A stretch of 64,000 bases of DNA from Coniochaeta sp. PMI_546 (lineage: Eukaryota; Ascomycota; Sordariomycetes; Coniochaetales; Coniochaetaceae). The notes under the pieces are model-generated. The model saw only the letters and a program-made list of their open reading frames with translations, was not told the origin of the DNA and ran no database searches. The stretch is taken from the NCBI GenBank assembly GCA_021432605.1, contig MU271147.1, positions 1,116,001 through 1,180,000 of the forward strand, given 5' to 3'. The position numbers and the translations under genes are program-made. Below, piece after piece: positions 55,213 through 63,678 of the stretch; position 1 is the first letter of the stretch, and each line of letters opens with the position of its first letter.

Positions 55213-58200
55213 TCATCGCATCACCAACCTCGAGTCCGTCCCACCACCACCACCACCACCACCACTCGGCGCACCCTCGGCACTAGTCAACGGCCGACTC
55301 AGCTGCAAAAACCCCTCCACCGCCGTATAAGGCGGCTTCTCGAACCTAGGCCGCTCATCCACCTTGTCCAGACCAAGCGGCATGTACCTCGGCGTCCCCA
55401 CCTCCCCAGCCCCTCCGCCAGACGTCGTCCCGGGGGGATAAGGCTGCAACCAGCGCCAATCCGAGCCCCTCAGCGCCGGCAGGCCGATCTTCCCCGCCAC
55501 GCTGGCGCTGGCCACATCGTCCTTGTCGGGCGTGAGCTCGAACTTGTCCGAGAACCCCGGCACGCCTCCCGTCAGCAGCACGGGGCCCGCGTGCACGAAG
55601 GCCGTCATCTTGGCCAGGGCGGCCTCGACGGCCCAGTGGGGCGGCTTGGCGGCGACGGTGGGCAGGGTAGCGCTGAAGGCGTGGATGGATGTGAAGGGGT
55701 CGACGAGGGCGGAGACGGGCTGGAGGGCGGCGTTGCGGAGCTGGGTTTGCTTGGCTGGGTCGACGGGGGTGTAGGACGGGGGGGTGGTGGGTTGGAGCTC
55801 GTCTGGGCTGATGAGGAAGGGGGACAGGGAGAGGGTGGAGGGTGTGATGGGGACGAGGTTGGGGGCGATTTTGGGGGAGGGCCAGAAGGTGTGGAGGGTG
55901 GTGTAGTCGAAGCTTGACTCTAGGGGGGGTGTTGGCGCGTTGTCAGACTTGGTTGGTGCTGGGGTGGGTTTCCAGAAGCCGAGGAGGCCGTCGTAGCTGC
56001 GTTGTTGATCGCCCAGCTGCAAGGGGAAGGAGTATTGTTTAGGTGGTGGCGCTGCTGCGGCTGCTGCGGGATCTGTGGCACCGGCTGCAAGCTGCTGTTG
56101 CTTTGAGTCCGGAGGCAGAAGCGTGTATGGGTCTGCGCCAGAGACGTTGGACTGGTTCTCCAGCGGATACGCAGCCAGCTCTAAAGACATGGCCAAGTTG
56201 ACCAGAGCCAGAGGCCGGCCGACGACACTGCTGACATATTGTGCATAGCTGGAGTTGGCTGGTTGCAGTTGGCCGAAGGACAGGGATATCATGTCGTAGA
56301 AGGCGCGGAGATACCCTGGGCTGCTCTCCGCTACCAGAGCATCGATGACCAGGTCCAACTGTCTGAACTGCGGCGGCGTTGAGGGCCGGCTGTAAGGCGT
56401 CCACGGCGGCGATGCCACGACGTCATGAGGGCCCCCGAACCGCAGTTCCCGGTAGAAGGTGCCGTCAGAGAGAAAGAACTGCATGCCGTAGTCGGCGTAG
56501 TTCATCAGTACCCAACCGTAGATTGGTGTCTCCCAGTCGTTCATCGGCATCCACTGAGTCGGAGTGTCGGGGTCGGGCTTGCAGAAGACCAGGTTGACTC
56601 GGCCGGGCTGGTTGATTGAGGGAGGGATCTGGGCGTACTCGCACTCCGGCACGGGGAGGTCGTATGTGACGGTGTTCGGGTATACTGGGCTGGGATCCGG
56701 TTTCGACGGCGGCGGCGGTGGTGGTGGAGGTGGCGGGGGCAGTTTGTCTAGCGTCTGGCAGGCGTATACATCCGAGAGACAAATAGGAGTGTGAATCCTG
56801 CCTGTTTGCTCTGGTGAGGGGTCTAGAACACAGATTGCGCGACCGAACTTGTCGAGGATGTTTATCTGTGTGAAGCGTAACTGTCCATGCGATGCCGGCT
56901 TGAACGGACTGAGCCCAGAGACATCCAGCTGGACCGAATTACCATACGGCGTGAGGCTTGTATGTTGACCCACAATGCCTCCCAAGATGTCGTTGGCTGG
57001 GTCCCCCATGCCGATTGGCAGCCCTGCCTCGAGAGCCGCGGCGGTGGCGGTTACTTGTTCGCCTCTCGGCCTTTGGGTCGGCTTGATGTGAGTCCCAGCG
57101 ACGCGTGTGGTCAGATGAGGCGTAAGGCCGGCCAGCGTGGAAGAAAGAAATGGAAGGAGGTTGAAGTTGTTCTGGTCTTGAAGAAATTTGATTTCACATG
57201 GCTTCAGCGGAATGTTGGACCCCAGGTTCGTCAGCAACTGGCCCACGGCGGTGGCGAGTGACAGTGTCGGCTGGGGCAGGATGAGGCAACGACCCGAGAC
57301 TGGCCTGCGGTCGTTGTCAAGCTGTGACACGACCACCCCGTCGCGGATGCCCCATCGGACCGTGTCGTCTCTCTTGTCCAAAGAAAAGCTGTCGTACGGA
57401 ATGTGATAGTATTCTGCCTGCCACTCGATGAAAAGGGGGGCCCATGGCTGCACCGTCCACCTGTCACGCCACAGGTTGGGATCCTCAATCTGGTCGTGGT
57501 AAAGCGGGAGCACACAGTTCTTGCTGGAGACAGTGATCTTCTCTGCCCCATAGAGTATGCGGAACTCGGTCAGTAAACCCACGACGGCAGTCTGGTGTTG
57601 TTTAGGTACTTTTGCGCCTATACCTGTTGCAAATGTATCGTAGGCTGTACCCCAGTCCGGAGCTGTACCAGATGTGATATCTGTGACTTTGACAGTCTGG
57701 GTATCGACTCGAATGGCCAGTGGTGACAAGTAGTCGTGCGGCCAACCGGCCTGCACGCCGCCGACGAGCAGAGTAGGGTCTTTCCGCTGAGAGTAGGGGG
57801 TGCGAGTGCCTTTCTTTGCTGCTTCCAGGGGATGTTGCGTGGCCATTTTCGTGATAGTAGTCTCTAACGTGGCATTGCGATCGTGTAGATTCGTCCAGCG
57901 TTGTGCAGTGGTCTGGACTTTTGTCTTCAGGTCATCGCTTGGCGTGAGACCTCCAGATACAACCTTCCACCAGATGGAGAACAAGTCCCAAGACAGCCGG
58001 TCCATGACTCTTGCGTTGTTGTCGAAAGCGTCCTGCAAGCCATTCAGCTCGGCTAACGCTGTACCCTGGTCGGCCGTCGGCGTGAAGGTCGGCGCAGTGC
58101 CATCGGTAGGTCCCAAGTGCCATTGTGAACCGCCATCCCAGTGCTGGAAGGAGTAACTCTCGAGGAGGTCACCCGCTTGCATATTGGCGTCAACGCCTTC

Positions 58201-59466
58201 ATCCTGGGCCAGAATCTGGGTCTGAATGGCAATCAGGTCAGTCTCTAGTCTTTTCAGAGCGCCTGTATCGTCGTCCACATGTGCCTTGACCAGTGTCATC
58301 AACGCATCCGCGGCCGAGGTGCCAACGGCGATGGGGGAGGTTTCGGCAACCATTGCGGCCGCCTTCTGGGCTGTGCCGTCCGGCACTGCGTCCGTGAGGG
58401 ACCACTGGACGTCGTACATGGCACCGTGACAAAGAACATCGGCCGACGTGTCGTCTGCCTGCCAGGTGCTCGCGTCGCCTATGGAGGCGTCCTTCATCGT
58501 CATGGCTAGATTGCCCATACGGTCGCCTCGTTTGGTATTCTGGCTGGTGATGTGGAAAGGGTTGTAAGTGGGGTGGGCGTGCCATCCTATCACGTAGTAG
58601 CTGGCAGCGGCAGCGCTGATCTTGTTGAGGCTTCCGTTAGTGTCCAGGTAAGTCATCTCGTCTATCATGCTGAAGACGTTGCTGTTGTGTGGCTGGTAAT
58701 CCGCAAACAGGTGGTTTGATGAGTACAACAGGGACATGTCCACGGACACCCGATTGGTGTCTTCCTGCCAGACATCCACGGAGGTCTTGTGGCCGACGAA
58801 GACCTCGGCTTGCTGCTCGATATTGGAGTTTGAGTTTTCGCGTTCGGCCTTGACAAACGGCGAGAAGTCGGTCTGCAAATCAACCTCGCGAGTCCCGTCG
58901 TCGGTCTTGAGCGGGACGTCCTCGAGAATGGAGAGACGGTCGCTGTCGAGGACCCAACCCTGGAACTGCAGCTTGGCCTTTTCGGCATCTGACACTGCCG
59001 TCGGAGTGCGGAGTGTGTCGAGGTCCAGGTAACGCACGATGAGCCAGCGAGTGGGAACTGGACGAAAGTCGGGCGCGCTGTAGTCGGGTTGGGCGCTGGG
59101 ACCGATGGGCTGGTAGCCCTGTCTCTCCCTCTGCTCACGAGAGGTCGCCGTCGAGGTTCCTGCGGCTCCCATGCGGTATGCTCGGGGCATGACCCATGAT
59201 ACGTACACACCTTGACGATTCACTCTCCTTTGGCCGGTACCGAGGTCGGTAAGACGCTGGTTGCGTTCAATAGGGGACGTGTAGTGAAGGTCTGTGAAGG
59301 GCAGTACGTCGTTCTGGACCATGCTCTCGTCGAGGCGAAGAAAAGTGTAGTTTGGCTGGGCGATCGGAGCGACCTTCACCTGCTCGTCTGCGGCCACTTT
59401 TTCGTTCATGACCAGACAGTCCAGTTTCATAGGCACACATGCAATCGAGGGTAGGGACGCCATCAT
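55213..59466 (-). CDS. Giant intronless protein, 1417 aa, unknown function (left member of divergent pair)
   Basis: This is one uninterrupted exon. There is no signal peptide or transmembrane helix, so the protein is probably soluble. Residues 1-900 look folded and beta-rich, with many Trp. Landmarks are WVMPRAYRMG (about 90), WLIVRYLDLDTL (about 140), FQGWVLDSDRLSILEDVP (about 165), YYVIGWHAHPTYNP (about 290), VLCHGAMYDVQW (about 345), WPHDYLSPLAIRV (about 580) and QPWAPLFIEWQAEYYHIPYD (about 680). A predicted helical pair lies at about 395-560. An 11-proline run near 920 is a hinge. The C-terminal third includes DWETPIYGWVLMNYADYGMQ and ends in a run of nine Gly. The start has two adjacent ATGs (59466 and 59463). 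I know no fungal family like this; the motif style resembles large uncharacterised bacterial proteins, from memory only. It is divergent from the 1132-aa gene with an 813-bp gap. Confidence 0.88.
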   Translation of the reverse strand: MMASLPSIACVPMKLDCLVMNEKVAADEQVKVAPIAQPNYTFLRLDESMVQNDVLPFTDLHYTSPIERNQRLTDLGTGQRRVNRQGVYVSWVMPRAYRMGAAGTSTATSREQRERQGYQPIGPSAQPDYSAPDFRPVPTRWLIVRYLDLDTLRTPTAVSDAEKAKLQFQGWVLDSDRLSILEDVPLKTDDGTREVDLQTDFSPFVKAERENSNSNIEQQAEVFVGHKTSVDVWQEDTNRVSVDMSLLYSSNHLFADYQPHNSNVFSMIDEMTYLDTNGSLNKISAAAASYYVIGWHAHPTYNPFHITSQNTKRGDRMGNLAMTMKDASIGDASTWQADDTSADVLCHGAMYDVQWSLTDAVPDGTAQKAAAMVAETSPIAVGTSAADALMTLVKAHVDDDTGALKRLETDLIAIQTQILAQDEGVDANMQAGDLLESYSFQHWDGGSQWHLGPTDGTAPTFTPTADQGTALAELNGLQDAFDNNARVMDRLSWDLFSIWWKVVSGGLTPSDDLKTKVQTTAQRWTNLHDRNATLETTITKMATQHPLEAAKKGTRTPYSQRKDPTLLVGGVQAGWPHDYLSPLAIRVDTQTVKVTDITSGTAPDWGTAYDTFATGIGAKVPKQHQTAVVGLLTEFRILYGAEKITVSSKNCVLPLYHDQIEDPNLWRDRWTVQPWAPLFIEWQAEYYHIPYDSFSLDKRDDTVRWGIRDGVVVSQLDNDRRPVSGRCLILPQPTLSLATAVGQLLTNLGSNIPLKPCEIKFLQDQNNFNLLPFLSSTLAGLTPHLTTRVAGTHIKPTQRPRGEQVTATAAALEAGLPIGMGDPANDILGGIVGQHTSLTPYGNSVQLDVSGLSPFKPASHGQLRFTQINILDKFGRAICVLDPSPEQTGRIHTPICLSDVYACQTLDKLPPPPPPPPPPPSKPDPSPVYPNTVTYDLPVPECEYAQIPPSINQPGRVNLVFCKPDPDTPTQWMPMNDWETPIYGWVLMNYADYGMQFFLSDGTFYRELRFGGPHDVVASPPWTPYSRPSTPPQFRQLDLVIDALVAESSPGYLRAFYDMISLSFGQLQPANSSYAQYVSSVVGRPLALVNLAMSLELAAYPLENQSNVSGADPYTLLPPDSKQQQLAAGATDPAAAAAAPPPKQYSFPLQLGDQQRSYDGLLGFWKPTPAPTKSDNAPTPPLESSFDYTTLHTFWPSPKIAPNLVPITPSTLSLSPFLISPDELQPTTPPSYTPVDPAKQTQLRNAALQPVSALVDPFTSIHAFSATLPTVAAKPPHWAVEAALAKMTAFVHAGPVLLTGGVPGFSDKFELTPDKDDVASASVAGKIGLPALRGSDWRWLQPYPPGTTSGGGAGEVGTPRYMPLGLDKVDERPRFEKPPYTAVEGFLQLSRPLTSAEGAPSGGGGGGGGTDSRLVMR

Positions 59467-59505
59467 GAGCTTGTTGGCGGGACTGATGAACTTTGGTAGA
59501 GTCGC

Positions 59506-59527
59506 TTTTCTTTCTTTCTTTCTTTTT
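59506..59527. repeat. TTTC-rich microsatellite
   Basis: A short run of CTTT units sits about 40 bp upstream of the 1417-aa gene start, probably in its leader. Confidence 0.85.
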
Positions 59528-59771
59528 ATTCTTCTTCGGCTATAGCATACATGTGTTCAAGGTGAGTTGACACGATGAAAGACGTGCGAGGCCAATTGAA
59601 ACCGATCATCACTCAGGACCAAGTTCAGGTCTTCTGTGTGCCGCATTCAATCAGACCATGCCCGGTAACATGAAACCTCAGGCTGCTATCATTAGAGCCA
59701 TGTGCTCGAGCTAATAGTGAGCATTCCGAGTTTGAATGCATACCGAAAGCAAAAGGTGGCTGCATTGGCAG

Positions 59772-59822
59772 GTGATGCTGATGCTGATGCTGATACTGGT
59801 GCTGGTGCTGGTGCTTGTGCTG
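59772..59822. repeat. Hexamer/trinucleotide repeat GCTGAT-GCTGGT
   Basis: About eight imperfect GCTGAT then GCTGGT units lie in the middle of the bidirectional promoter region. Confidence 0.9.
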
Positions 59823-60279
59823 GGTGTCTCAGAGGTCCAACAGTGTTGTGTAACTGCCGTGCCAGCGGTCTCGACCGCCCCGATTATGCGCTAGTGATGA
59901 TTAACGTGCATCGCCTGTGCATTAGTGCCACAGTAAGGTCGGCCTGATGGACACTGTGACAACTGCACCACTGATATGTTCGATGTGACAGGTGGACCAC
60001 TGATATGTGACAAAGTAAGGTAGTCTTTTGACTTTGGACGTGGCTTGGCTTGTGAGGTGTCTGTCTGGCTTGCTTGTGGACAGCACAACTCAGTAAGATG
60101 GGTGAAGATATGAGGGAGAAGATGAGGGGGGAGATTGACGAGGAAACACAACCATCTCGTCAGACTATCACTCACCCAACCGACGATCGTCAAGCTCAGA
60201 GTCCAAGTCCTCATCACCAACACACACAACACGTCGTCTTACCATATCTACACTTGCCTCATGTCAACCTGGCCACGCC

Positions 60280-63200
60280 ATGTCTTCCAACGACAAGTTC
60301 AAGAACGCCCCGAGGGTCTTGACCCTGAATGCGGCATGGCAAGTCTGGCTCAAGGCGAAACCAAACAAGTTTGACTCCGTCATCCGCAGGCTCAAGGAGG
60401 TTGGAGATGACCCTGAGCCTTCGGACCTGCCAACGGGTTTCGAGCTTCTTCACTCGTTCTATGCGCCCGGCCTGATGGCGTCTTCCGAGGTTCCAATCAA
60501 TACGATCAAGATCACCCAGACTATTGACCCAAAGGACCCAGCTGACAAGCCGCTCACGCTCGACTCCGCGCAGGAGTTCGTCGTCATTGCACCGCAGTTC
60601 AGCTTACCGGCCGGCGACATCCACAGCGTGTATCCTCCTCAAGGCAGCGCTGCGGCTGCCGCCATCTTGCCTCACGTAGTCTTCAATGACCCTCATCTCC
60701 CGTGGGAACGGTGGGTGATTGACCCCGCCAAGGAGAAGGAGCCTAAGAGGAACAAGACCCCATGGATGGCCCTCATGGCTTTCACCGCTGACGAGATTCT
60801 CTTGGACCCGAAGGAGCTCGCAGGGCCTGGCAGGATCTTCGCTTCCGACGTCCAGCAGAACCCGACCCTTAGCATTACCCAGAAGGTTGGGGATCTGACG
60901 GCCATCCGGCCAGAGAATGCAAAGAACTGTGTGCCTCAGGGGACAGACCCAACCACCACTGCCGACTTCGTCTTCATGACGCCTCAGGCGTTCAACAATT
61001 ATTTCGCCTCGGACCCCCCCAAGACCGGTGTCCTCGCTACCCAGACACAGCCGGACCTGAGTCCGTATCGGTTCACCGCTCACTCGAGAGCCATCAACAC
61101 AGCCGGCATGGCCGATGCAGGCACGCAGGACGACGGACTCTACAGCGTGGTGGTGTCCCGGCGCTGTGGCGTATGGGACAACAAGGTTCCAGTCCCAATC
61201 TACGTCCATCTAGTTTCTATCGACGAAGCCGAGAAACTGGCCCCTTGGCCAATGGACGGGACCAAGCACGTTGCCCTCTGCTCCCTCTACAGTTGGACGT
61301 ACCAGTGCCTGCCGCCGGAGTCGGTCGACATTCACGATGCACTCAAGGAACTAGGGGCAACTGCAGCCATGTTGGGCCCTCCCGCTGCTCTTTCCAAACA
61401 ATGGAAAGCCGACAGTGATCCGATCAAGAAGTTGCTTGGTCAGCGGTTGCAAGATGGGTTCACGCTCTCCCGCTATCTTCTGCAGGATGGAGAGGAGACA
61501 GCAGCTTTCTATCGCGGTCCGCTTACACCGACTGCTGTTGACTGGCCACTGACATCGACATTCCCAAAGCAGTCCACCTACTCAACAGACCTGCAAATTC
61601 TGGACAGCGCATTGGGCATCATGGACATCACATATAGCACCGCGTGGCAGCTCGGACGAGTTCTCGGGCTGGCGGACCAGGCTTTCTTCACCGCTTTAAG
61701 CCGCCTACGCACAGCCATCCACACTGTAGCCCTCGACAAGGCTAAGAAGGCGATTCTTGCAGACGCGCATCGGACGGGCCGCCAAGTTGCTGCGAGTCTG
61801 ATGGCATCATTTGAGACACTCCGCCATCTGACGGCAACCCGGGAAATACACCCGAGGAAGAGGTGGAACCGTCCACGGCCTCCGCCGCCAGACCTGTCGC
61901 TGTGGTCTTCTGAAATGCAGGCCGCTTTTGCTATAGCGGTCAGTGACACTGTTGCCGACTTCGCCAGCAGCCCGGACGGTGGATACTATAACGAACTCAA
62001 CCGCTCTGCCAATGCCGACTACGCGATAGTGCTGAAGTGGGTTCTCGACCGGAAGTTCCTCTTTGGTATCCCGGCGCATTACCTGATTCCTGACCCGTCT
62101 CATCTTCCGGTTGAGTCCCTTCGCTTCTTCCAGATAGATCAGAATTGGGTTGATGCTCTTGTGGATGGTGCTCTCAGTCTTGCCAACCATACCGACCAAG
62201 CCGAAGACCCGGCTAGGAACGCGATTCAGGGCGCCATAAAGTCCTTCATCGACACGCCAGACCCGGTGCTTGGCTATAAGCCACAGATACCCACATACGG
62301 TTTTTTATTGAGGAGCAACATAGTCACGCAATTTCCTGATCTTCATGTTGATATTCCTTTCACGTCGAAAGATACACCCAAGGCCACTCTCCTTCGCCAT
62401 GAAAACATAGATCAAGGTGTGATGCTGGTGCTCATCGACCGTCTTCCTGGCGACAAGGAGCTGACAGGGCTGGCTCTGACGCAACCACCGCACCAGCAGC
62501 GCTTTGCCGCCGCCGCCACGGTCGGCATCGAACCTGGTGCCAAGCCCCCCGTTCTTACGCCGACCTTTGAAGTCGAACATATGCCCGTGTTCACAATCTC
62601 TAACCCTCCCAGTGGCGATATTGGCCAAAATTGCGGCCCAAAAGTCACGTTTGTTCAGGGGGGCACTTACGACAACCCTCTCTTTGACTTTGAGACGAGA
62701 CTGATCAACATCGACAACTTCGCCCAGCACGTGTTGCACAATCTGCAGCAGTATATGCCCAAGACGCCAGTTCCGGAATTCACCGACACTGTGGCAACAG
62801 CCGCTATGATGGCCATTCAACTCAACGATCCTGTCTACAGGGTCAACATCACATTTCCTGGCATCCCGGCACCACCATCGGCAAAGCCAGACACGCCGCC
62901 GACGTTTGCGGTCACGCACAGAAGTATCAAGACATCTGCGACGTGGAAGTATGGTATAGCAGCACATTATGCGGACTGGATAGCATCCCAGGGCACATCC
63001 CATGTCAAGCCCCAGGGGCTTGCAGGTGGCCATGTCCCTCGGACAATATCGACGGCTGAAGCTCGTTCTCGCCCAAGAAATGCGCCTCCGCCGCATTATC
63101 GAACGATACATTTCAAAAGATTACCACTGGTGGCTTTTACTGACGATCCACCGGCCGACAAACCCAAATTCTCTTACGGAATGTGGCCTGTCGGGGCTGT

Positions 63201-63678
63201 GACGGGGAATGTGGGATCCGACCCTCCACCCATTCCAATCACGAAGACGCTGCAGGACCTGGTAATCTCAATCCAACTGCCTCCGGACCAGCGCGAGGTC
63301 GGCAATTTCTTTCTATCGAAAATCGTCGTGGTCATCCCCTACGGCGAACCGAACAATCCTGCGGGACGCACCAACCTATTCAAGAGCTATCGAGGCATCG
63401 GCCCGACAATGCTGAGCAACGTTCGGTTCAACGTCCACACCCAGTACGATAGTGATGTTGACGGGCCACTGATGAAGCTGAGCATCATTCCGAGGCGGGT
63501 CTCCGGGGTCATCAGCATCAAGCTCATCAACGAGATGAGCATCTTGCTTCCTGAGGTGGAGGTGAACGCGTATACGAAGCCTGGGCTTTCCGTCATGTGT
63601 CAGATGTGGGAGTGGTATACCTTTCAGCCCGACCAAGGATTCAGCTCCCCACTGCAAGTGTATTTAGACATCAAATAA
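60280..63678 (+). CDS. Giant intronless protein, 1132 aa, unknown function (right member of divergent pair)
   Basis: This is one uninterrupted exon starting at CGCCATGTCTTCC. There is no signal peptide or membrane segment. The N-terminal 430 residues are mixed alpha/beta with ELLHSFYAPGLMASSEVPIN (about 50), DEAEKLAPWPMDGTKHVALC (about 310) and LSRYLLQDGEETAAFYRGPL (about 400). A helical central part follows, with TYSTAWQLGRVLGLADQAFF (about 450) and a conserved-looking IPAHYLIPD/LPVESLRFFQIDQNWVDAL block at about 600-630. The C-terminal 450 residues are beta-rich, ending in MWEWYTFQPDQGFSSPLQVY. There is no recognisable catalytic motif. The WVDALVDGALSLAN stretch reminds me of large uncharacterised bacterial proteins, which is unverified recollection. 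Divergent pairing with the 1417-aa gene, similar lack of introns and similar composition suggest the two proteins work together. Confidence 0.88.
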   Translation: MSSNDKFKNAPRVLTLNAAWQVWLKAKPNKFDSVIRRLKEVGDDPEPSDLPTGFELLHSFYAPGLMASSEVPINTIKITQTIDPKDPADKPLTLDSAQEFVVIAPQFSLPAGDIHSVYPPQGSAAAAAILPHVVFNDPHLPWERWVIDPAKEKEPKRNKTPWMALMAFTADEILLDPKELAGPGRIFASDVQQNPTLSITQKVGDLTAIRPENAKNCVPQGTDPTTTADFVFMTPQAFNNYFASDPPKTGVLATQTQPDLSPYRFTAHSRAINTAGMADAGTQDDGLYSVVVSRRCGVWDNKVPVPIYVHLVSIDEAEKLAPWPMDGTKHVALCSLYSWTYQCLPPESVDIHDALKELGATAAMLGPPAALSKQWKADSDPIKKLLGQRLQDGFTLSRYLLQDGEETAAFYRGPLTPTAVDWPLTSTFPKQSTYSTDLQILDSALGIMDITYSTAWQLGRVLGLADQAFFTALSRLRTAIHTVALDKAKKAILADAHRTGRQVAASLMASFETLRHLTATREIHPRKRWNRPRPPPPDLSLWSSEMQAAFAIAVSDTVADFASSPDGGYYNELNRSANADYAIVLKWVLDRKFLFGIPAHYLIPDPSHLPVESLRFFQIDQNWVDALVDGALSLANHTDQAEDPARNAIQGAIKSFIDTPDPVLGYKPQIPTYGFLLRSNIVTQFPDLHVDIPFTSKDTPKATLLRHENIDQGVMLVLIDRLPGDKELTGLALTQPPHQQRFAAAATVGIEPGAKPPVLTPTFEVEHMPVFTISNPPSGDIGQNCGPKVTFVQGGTYDNPLFDFETRLINIDNFAQHVLHNLQQYMPKTPVPEFTDTVATAAMMAIQLNDPVYRVNITFPGIPAPPSAKPDTPPTFAVTHRSIKTSATWKYGIAAHYADWIASQGTSHVKPQGLAGGHVPRTISTAEARSRPRNAPPPHYRTIHFKRLPLVAFTDDPPADKPKFSYGMWPVGAVTGNVGSDPPPIPITKTLQDLVISIQLPPDQREVGNFFLSKIVVVIPYGEPNNPAGRTNLFKSYRGIGPTMLSNVRFNVHTQYDSDVDGPLMKLSIIPRRVSGVISIKLINEMSILLPEVEVNAYTKPGLSVMCQMWEWYTFQPDQGFSSPLQVYLDIK

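What the first reader, a model, noticed from the sequence alone, without database searches (positions are those of the whole stretch)
55213..63678. Divergent pair of giant intronless genes: candidate undescribed two-protein system
Two single-exon genes of 1417 and 1132 codons face away from each other across 813 bp. Neither product has a signal peptide, membrane helix or motif of a known fungal enzyme or scaffold, yet both look well folded, Trp-rich and under coding constraint over their full length. Divergent arrangement suggests joint regulation and a joint complex. Motif style (LPVESLRFFQIDQNWVDAL in one, YYVIGWHAHP and PLFIEWQAEYYH in the other) reminds me of large uncharacterised bacterial proteins encoded side by side, so transfer from bacteria is a hypothesis; this is recollection, not a search result.
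Basis: partly seen in the sequence, partly recalled or inferred. Interest (0 to 1): 0.85.

Follow-up and report, generated by a model that had tools for sequence, protein, structure and literature searches.

The report
Bacterial fibre-operon proteins inside a fungus
Two giant fungal proteins of unknown kind turn out to be two parts of an undescribed protein set that many soil bacteria encode as one operon next to fibre-like recognition proteins, and the fungus appears to have taken up the set and kept its parts together.

Summary
In detail: A (1417 codons, minus strand) and B (1132 codons, plus strand) lie 813 bp apart, without Pfam, NCBIfam, PADLOC or PDB relatives. The recollected bacterial link is also right: homologues lie side by side in Actinomycetota, Paenibacillus and five further lineages. 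But the system has more than two parts. A DUF6603 gene (D), then B, then A follow on one strand in 76 of 77 loci found through A; a protein C with constant head and variable tail is in 71 of 83. Of 38 loci fetched through DUF6603, 24 of 24 of one DUF6603 subfamily have A and B, 0 of 14 of the other. The fungus's only DUF6603 domain starts 7.6 kb beyond B, after a metallo-beta-lactamase-like gene, as in some bacteria. Fungal A and B keep 73 of 94 and 53 of 67 bacterially conserved columns at 22% and 24% identity. Most likely these are subunits of an undescribed, fibre-bearing recognition complex acquired from bacteria. Linkage and homology are well supported and transfer likely; the function is inferred, and no C was found in the fungus.

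The parts
55213..59466 (-). Gene A: 1417 codons, no intron; homologue of the third gene of the bacterial D-B-A operon
   Evidence: ORF; tblastn; alignment with bacterial A; keeps 73 of 94 columns conserved in at least 95% of bacterial rows, and 16 of 19 conserved Trp columns
59467..60279 (.). 813-bp spacer between the divergent genes (49.7% G+C); possible shared promoter, untested
60280..63678 (+). Gene B: 1132 codons, no intron; homologue of the second gene of the operon. The last ~264 codons have no counterpart in bacterial B. (Three further parts lie beyond the window end and cannot be listed here: see 'The fungal cluster' in the full report)
   Evidence: ORF; tblastn; alignment; keeps 53 of 67 conserved columns; the C-terminal extension finds nothing better than E 0.41 in the fetched bacterial frames

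Best explanation
A and B are two subunits of a multi-protein complex that bacteria encode as an operon, D(DUF6603)-B-A-C. SHOWN: the linkage, the homology of the fungal A, B and D, the constant-head/variable-tail pattern of C, and one A-C and one B-C fusion in bacteria. INFERRED: A and B form the body to which C attaches by its constant head; C is a fibre-like adhesin whose changeable tip recognises a target surface (a glycan, phospholipid or cell wall); and D, a long run of about 20 amphipathic beta-strands, is the membrane-active or shell/groove element. No signal sequence is evident by eye (no program was run), so the complex probably works in the cytosol or is released by lysis, as particles of the contractile-injection and Tc type are (recalled). 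The fungus acquired the operon from a bacterium long ago, kept A, B, D and probably the metallo-beta-lactamase gene within about 19 kb, rearranged their strands and added an intron to D. It plausibly uses the complex against, or to recognise, other organisms.
For: Linkage from A: 76 of 77 genome loci and 5 of 6 plasmid loci have D-B-A on one strand. B-A gap median 3 nt, 36 of 81 overlapping; D-B 27 of 79 overlapping. Linkage from D: 24 of 24 group I loci have A and B. B profile in Actinomycetota: 6 of 396 genomes, two of them weakly, all among the 12 of 396 with DUF6603. C: 71 of 83 loci, 19 with two to four copies; heads similar in 2207 of 3081 pairs, tails in 183 of 3081. C domains: F5/8 type C in 5, Bactofilin in 3, PLAT in 1, Peptidase_S74 in 1 of 69 members; phage tail-fibre PHROGs match single members (25 of 30 families shown). 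A gene between A and D in a myxobacterial locus (L114) matches the solved Bdellovibrio fibre Bd2133, E 3.8e-5; three such genes (L114, L119, L132) carry three or more GIGT-x-P-like motifs, and no other frame of the 38 D loci does. A-C fusion in L084, B-C fusion in L090. Fungus: sole DUF6603 domain starts 7.6 kb from B; A and B retain 78% and 79% of conserved columns. D strands alternate strongly, 3.25 against 1.35 +/- 0.22 shuffled, 0 of 1000.
Against: No C gene was found in the fungal region, and the lectin-like reading of the fungal neighbour has no database support. 12 of 83 bacterial loci lack a called C. Only single C members match phage fibres, Pfam hits are few, and the C profile, an S74-bearing C and a propeller-like C find nothing in the PDB. 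The D model has pTM 0.60 and Foldseek TM-scores of 0.03-0.31, so barrel, groove and sandwich cannot be told apart; amphipathic strands are expected of most beta-sheets. B has no structural match, which gives no functional clue. A has no model. No assay, localisation or expression data were available. 14 of 38 DUF6603 loci lack A and a strong B.
Confidence: 0.5

Rival explanations
1. Envelope or spore-surface structure: D-B-A-C builds a layer or appendage on the producing cell itself (spore coat, sheath, surface adhesin) with no action on a target.
For: C heads are constant and tails variable; three C members match Bactofilin and one Fil_haemagg; hosts are mostly Actinomycetota, with Paenibacillus and myxobacteria, many of them spore formers (general knowledge).
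Against: DUF6603 is in only 12 of 396 Actinomycetota and 14 of 195 genomes of the Myxococcota set, in up to several copies per genome and on plasmids; a housekeeping coat would be less patchy.
Confidence: 0.2
2. Lipid-handling complex: D is a lipid-binding beta-groove like LptD or ApoB, with A and B as partners, which carries or extracts lipids; C tethers the complex to membranes.
For: The two Foldseek matches of D below E 0.001 are LptD (3.2e-4) and ApoB100 (8.3e-4); PLAT and F5/8C domains can bind lipids (family knowledge); one of 48 scanned operon neighbours matches LCAT, E 1.3e-4.
Against: TM-scores are 0.18 or less for both; SlpA, pilus ushers and porins score nearly as well, so the match may reflect any long beta-meander.
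Confidence: 0.15
3. Intracellular conflict (anti-phage or programmed-death) system.
For: Patchy distribution including plasmids; one locus lies near CHAT and CATRA conflict-type genes; a metallo-beta-lactamase neighbour matches PADLOC models RTasMBL and LmuA at 1e-9 and 3.1e-9.
Against: None of the A, B, C, D representatives scanned matches a PADLOC family; no nuclease or NTPase recurs in the operon in what I scanned; fibre-like C fits surface recognition better; no phage record or viral contig was found with it.
Confidence: 0.1
4. The fungal genes were inherited from an early eukaryote, or passed from fungi to bacteria, and not received from bacteria.
For: Fungal branches are very long and the donor is unresolved; base composition is like that of the host. 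No other fungal genome could be searched.
Against: Wide bacterial diversity; A and B lack introns; in the D tree the fungal row falls inside the A/B-linked bacterial subfamily when the other subfamily is used as root, though forks there are weak.
Confidence: 0.07

Closest known systems
DUF6603 (Pfam PF20248)
   Same: Gene D of the fungus and of the bacterial operons is a clear member
   Different: Its Pfam entry is described only as a family of unknown function. The tie of one subfamily to A and B is new here as far as I could search: 0 papers of the held library mention DUF6603 or PF20248
Mosaic adhesive trimer (MAT) fibres of Bdellovibrio (PMC10769870; start of abstract and passages seen)
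   Same: A myxobacterial gene between A and D matches Bd2133; constant N-terminal part, variable tip, S74 and non-S74 forms
   Different: MATs start with a signal peptide and a ~130-aa beta-rich domain and the passages seen name no D, B or A partner; the C profile itself gives no PDB match
Extracellular contractile injection systems (PMC8213781 and PMC12923769; passages seen)
   Same: Interchangeable tail-fibre tips (S74, lectins, Ig folds, beta-propellers), hemopexin-domain neighbours, patchy spread among environmental bacteria
   Different: No sheath, tube or baseplate family among the 25 of 31 families shown for 48 operon neighbours, though one neighbour has a Phage Tail Collar domain; fungal A and B match no Pfam family
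Tc / RHS toxin complexes (recalled, not searched for)
   Same: Several very large subunits encoded side by side
   Different: No RHS or Tc domain in fungal A or B

Membership tests
DUF6603 (PF20248) | Profile match above the curated cut-off | tested here: met
   Gene D only: E 7e-136, 456.5 bits against cut-off 27. A and B do not match
D-B-A operon family (defined here) | DUF6603, B and A homologues in one cluster | tested here: met
   Fungus: A, B, D within about 19 kb; one A, one D and a second partial B elsewhere in the genome. Bacteria:
D-B-A operon family (defined here) | C gene present | tested here: not met
   In the fungus the C profile finds nothing in the window and fetched flanks. 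In bacteria 71 of 83 loci have it
Extracellular contractile injection system | Sheath, tube, baseplate and AAA ATPase core genes in the cluster | tested here: inconclusive
   No sheath, tube or baseplate family among the 25 of 31 families shown for 48 of 61 operon-adjacent genes; one Collar match; one Paenibacillus plasmid has a baseplate V gene about 9 kb upstream of D
MAT fibres (for C) | Trimeric beta-prism shaft with variable tip | tested here: inconclusive
   Sequence match of the L114 fibre-like gene to Bd2133, E 3.8e-5; L080 C ends in an S74-like domain (reading of which member by eye) but has no PDB match; trimerisation not testable
MAT fibres (for C) | Signal peptide followed by a conserved ~130-aa beta-rich domain | not tested
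   No signal-peptide tool on hand
Known anti-phage defence systems (PADLOC) | Match of the core proteins to a defence family | tested here: not met
   0 families for one or two representatives each of A, B, C, D, fungal A and B included; only the metallo-beta-lactamase neighbour matches
Tc/RHS toxin complex | RHS repeat, TcA or TcB domains | tested here: not met
   0 Pfam and NCBIfam families in fungal A and B; bacterial A and B were not scanned against these libraries

The most novel reading that the evidence does not exclude
A new class of fibre-tipped protein machine, unrelated by sequence to contractile or Tc particles, exists in roughly 0.5-5% of the sampled genomes of several bacterial phyla, and a fungus has taken it over as a working set and re-armed it with its own recognition protein.
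Probability: 0.3. Interest if true: 0.92.

Novelty: categorically new. Interest (0 to 1): 0.74.

Why it matters
It gives a Pfam family without a function (DUF6603) and two unannotated giant families one shared context that can be tested in culturable Streptomyces and myxobacteria. Modelled B has no Foldseek relative at E 0.001 in the PDB or the viral library. Transfer of a multi-gene, apparently non-metabolic assembly into a fungus with retained linkage would be unusual, and suggests the parts are useful only together. If the complex recognises other cells, its natural C tips form a catalogue of binding modules.

Tried and rejected
Known-family reading of A and B: rejected, no Pfam, NCBIfam, PADLOC or PDB match for the fungal proteins; profiles of A, B and D find nothing convincing in the PDB (A has one hit at E 0.56). 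One PHROG for A at E 0.29 was judged chance. Phage origin: no match among 50,697 phage records, and 23 IMG/VR pattern matches for B gave 0 relatives. A-B, A-C and B-C as diverged copies of each other: no support in profile comparison. Recent transfer or contamination: rejected; G+C and codon usage fit the host, D lies in more than one frame, and 5 of 7 other long window frames scanned match ordinary families such as Raptor, D-arabinono-1,4-lactone oxidase and a TRP channel. Naming the donor: trees of A (46 rows: 45 of 82 long bacterial A genes plus the fungal one), B (37 rows) and D (41 rows), rows chosen by me, leave the fungal rows on long branches, so no donor is claimed. Fungal neighbour as a lectin: no support. 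The line that lists a metallo-beta-lactamase hit in every locus is a scripting artefact; the count of 14 of 81 stands, three of them weak (E 3e-6 to 3.4e-5, L058, L061, L088). VIA-align was not available.
Full report
OBSERVATION. One search confirms two long single frames: A, window 55213-59466 on the minus strand, 1417 codons, and B, 60280-63678 on the plus strand, 1132 codons, 813 bp apart and divergent. Of seven other long window frames scanned, five match ordinary families: Raptor, D-arabinono-1,4-lactone oxidase, a TRP channel, an RRM protein and a methyltransferase. The genome is 33.5 Mb in 24 contigs. Neither protein matches Pfam or NCBIfam at E up to 1 or a PDB sequence at E up to 1.

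BACTERIAL RELATIVES. tblastn against plasmids finds A in 8 records and B in 9: four Streptomyces, two Embleya and two Paenibacillus records for each, plus one weak Pseudomonas hit for B (E 0.09). In two annotated records B lies directly before A on the same strand and a DUF6603 gene directly before B; a third has B and A without DUF6603 (L001). A scan of 84,980 species genomes with an A alignment gave 206 pattern matches, 171 relatives, of which the best 80 (77 loci) were kept. Because they were ranked by likeness to a Streptomyces query, 70 of the 77 are Actinomycetota; the others are two Paenibacillus, Hyalangium, and MAGs of SAR324, Chlorobiaceae, Gammaproteobacteria and Acidobacteria. D-B-A on one strand holds in 76 of 77; the exception, L016, is a 4.5-kb contig that starts within B. 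One pair (L070, L089) looks like a duplicate at the two ends of one chromosome. Gaps are short: B-A median 3 nt with 36 of 81 overlapping, D-B 27 of 79 overlapping.

TEST FROM THE OTHER SIDE. To avoid choosing loci by A, I surveyed DUF6603: 12 of 396 genomes of the phylum of G001 (Actinomycetota), 9 of 398 in that of G010 (Pseudomonadota), 14 of 195 in that of G005 (Myxococcota), 5 of 199 in that of G009 (Acidobacteriota), and 1 of 199 in that of G004 (Bacillota; the centre genome itself). The tool tells no group names; phyla are read from the centre genomes, and each tally includes its centre, which was known to have the gene. 38 loci were fetched; loci already held through A and three fragmentary places were left out. 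Three of the 38 (L114, L130, L131) are further DUF6603 loci in genomes first reached through A. They split in two: group I, 24 loci whose DUF6603 matches the operon-type profile at E below 1e-100, 24 with A and B; group II, 14 loci at E 3e-25 or weaker, 0 with A and 0 with B at E below 1e-20. I set the cut after seeing the gap; nothing lies between about 1e-112 and 1e-25. One group II contig, L101, is only 3.4 kb long. Seven group II loci show a weak match, E about 0.02 to 1e-6, to a short N-terminal stretch of B in the gene after D, perhaps a distant cousin. Counting DUF6603 together with A and B, the survey gives 4 of 396, 9 of 398, 9 of 195, 3 of 199 and 1 of 199, centres included. A profile of B over the same 396 Actinomycetota found 6 genomes, all among the 12 with DUF6603; two of the six hits are weak and lie in group II loci, and the tool scored at most two candidates per genome. 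In 8 of 13 loci of the Myxococcota set the order is A-X-D-B; in several proteobacterial and other loci B lies in two frames.

THE FOURTH GENE. C is present in 71 of 83 A loci, 19 of them with two to four copies, and directly follows A in 70 cases. Among 79 C proteins longer than 330 aa, the first 260 residues are similar (BLAST E below 1e-5) in 2207 of 3081 pairs, the tails in 183 of 3081. A minority match Pfam: F5/8 type C in 5, Bactofilin in 3, PLAT, Peptidase_S74 and others in one each, 12 families over 69 members. Phage tail-fibre PHROGs match, each in a single member (25 of 30 families shown). In two of the myxobacterial A-X-D-B loci that I inspected (L114, L119), X looks like a fibre; X of L114, L119 and L132 carries three or more GIGT-x-P-like motifs and no other frame of the 38 D loci does, nor do any of the 1046 called genes of the 83 A loci carry two or more. 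X does not match the C profile. X of L114 matches Bd2133 (E 3.8e-5), a member of the Bdellovibrio MAT fibres, which their authors link to prey recognition (PMC10769870, start of abstract and passages); X of L114 and L119 has no Pfam match. That such motifs are typical of phage fibre shafts is recalled. C is fused to A in L084 and to B in L090, which suggests contact.

THE FUNGAL CLUSTER. Three more parts lie beyond the window end; places are given as contig G000:C5, of which the window is 1116001-1180000. Gene D, the only DUF6603 gene found in this genome, lies at about 1184156-1189825 on the plus strand, in more than one frame; its DUF6603 domain is at 1187320-1189042 and starts 7.6 kb past B. 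A metallo-beta-lactamase-like gene with HWDSDH and GHHG motifs is at about 1182293-1183541, plus strand, directly before D (Pfam scores below the curated cut-offs). A four-exon gene model of 308 aa at 1180646-1181796, plus strand, looks by eye like a beta-propeller lectin but has no Pfam match and no PDB match below E 0.25. A metallo-beta-lactamase gene stands before D in 14 of 81 bacterial loci, three by weak matches. The fungal one resembles these (best E 3.8e-7 and 2.3e-5, in a set of only 11 proteins), which is superfamily-level likeness, made suggestive by the shared position. No C was found. A second, shorter B copy on contig C3 is sister to B (SH-aLRT 100), most simply a duplication in the fungal line. 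Fungal A keeps 73 of 94, and B 53 of 67, of the columns conserved in at least 95% of bacterial rows, although overall identity to the Streptomyces reference is 22% and 24%. That is strong evidence of long selection on both. G+C and codon usage are host-like, so the transfer is old. Direction from bacteria is likely by breadth of distribution, but no other fungus could be searched; the D tree places the fungal row inside the bacterial subfamily, with weak forks and long branches.

STRUCTURE. B (Streptomyces L017, 753 aa) models well, pLDDT 86.6 and pTM 0.74, yet has no match at E 0.001 or better in the PDB or the viral library. D (849 aa) models with pLDDT 79 and pTM 0.60, with about 20 successive long strands joined by short turns in its central part, antiparallel by inference. 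The best Foldseek matches are LptD, ApoB100, SlpA, FimD and maltoporin, with low TM-scores. Its strands alternate polar and apolar residues far more than shuffled ones, as most beta-sheets would.

MECHANISM. Shown: the operon, its breadth, the constant-head/variable-tail pattern of C, fibre likeness of a few C or X members, two fusions, and homology plus conservation for the fungal A, B and D. Inferred: A and B are the body, C the changeable receptor-binding part, and D a beta-sheet shell, pore or lipid groove; the complex meets other cells after release or at the surface. The fungal version lacks an identifiable C and may use another recognition protein. Rivals are a self-coat, a lipid carrier, or an intracellular conflict system.

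NOVELTY. DUF6603 and PF20248 occur in 0 papers of the held open library; most subscription journals and bioRxiv preprints are not in it. Interest is high because a clean genomic fact, a conserved D-B-A-C operon of which three parts are shared with a fungus, has no described function that I could find.

Noticed in passing
G000:C3:468906-471017 (-), L011/L012/L093: A second B copy, one open frame of 704 codons without the C-terminal extension, near a calpain-like gene (by eye); no A or D match anywhere near it. The whole-genome search reports 3 TGA inside its lower matched stretch.
   Followed up: partly
L096, L098-L104, L118, L122, L123, L125-L127: A divergent DUF6603 subfamily without A or a strong B; in seven of these 14 loci the next gene shows a weak match to one short stretch of B, which suggests a cousin system.
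   Followed up: partly
L097, L106, L107, L110, L111, L113, L117, L128, L129: DUF6603 in stop-to-stop frames of 3194-3518 codons; in the one scanned (L106) Pfam sees nothing but DUF6603.
   Followed up: partly
L068, L069 and other loci, upstream of D: Hemopexin-domain genes among operon neighbours (9 of 48 scanned), and a cluster of HELIHAAH-type zinc-peptidase-like genes in 6 loci, two of which were scanned and weakly resemble Peptidase_M91.
   Followed up: no
NZ_CP031455 (L043, L051, L070, L089): Streptomyces olivoreticuli has five DUF6603 places, four of them mirrored at the two chromosome ends.
   Followed up: no
G000:C5:1192491-1198845 (L015): A P-type cation ATPase and a flavin amine oxidase gene follow the fungal cluster; whether they belong to it is unknown.
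   Followed up: no
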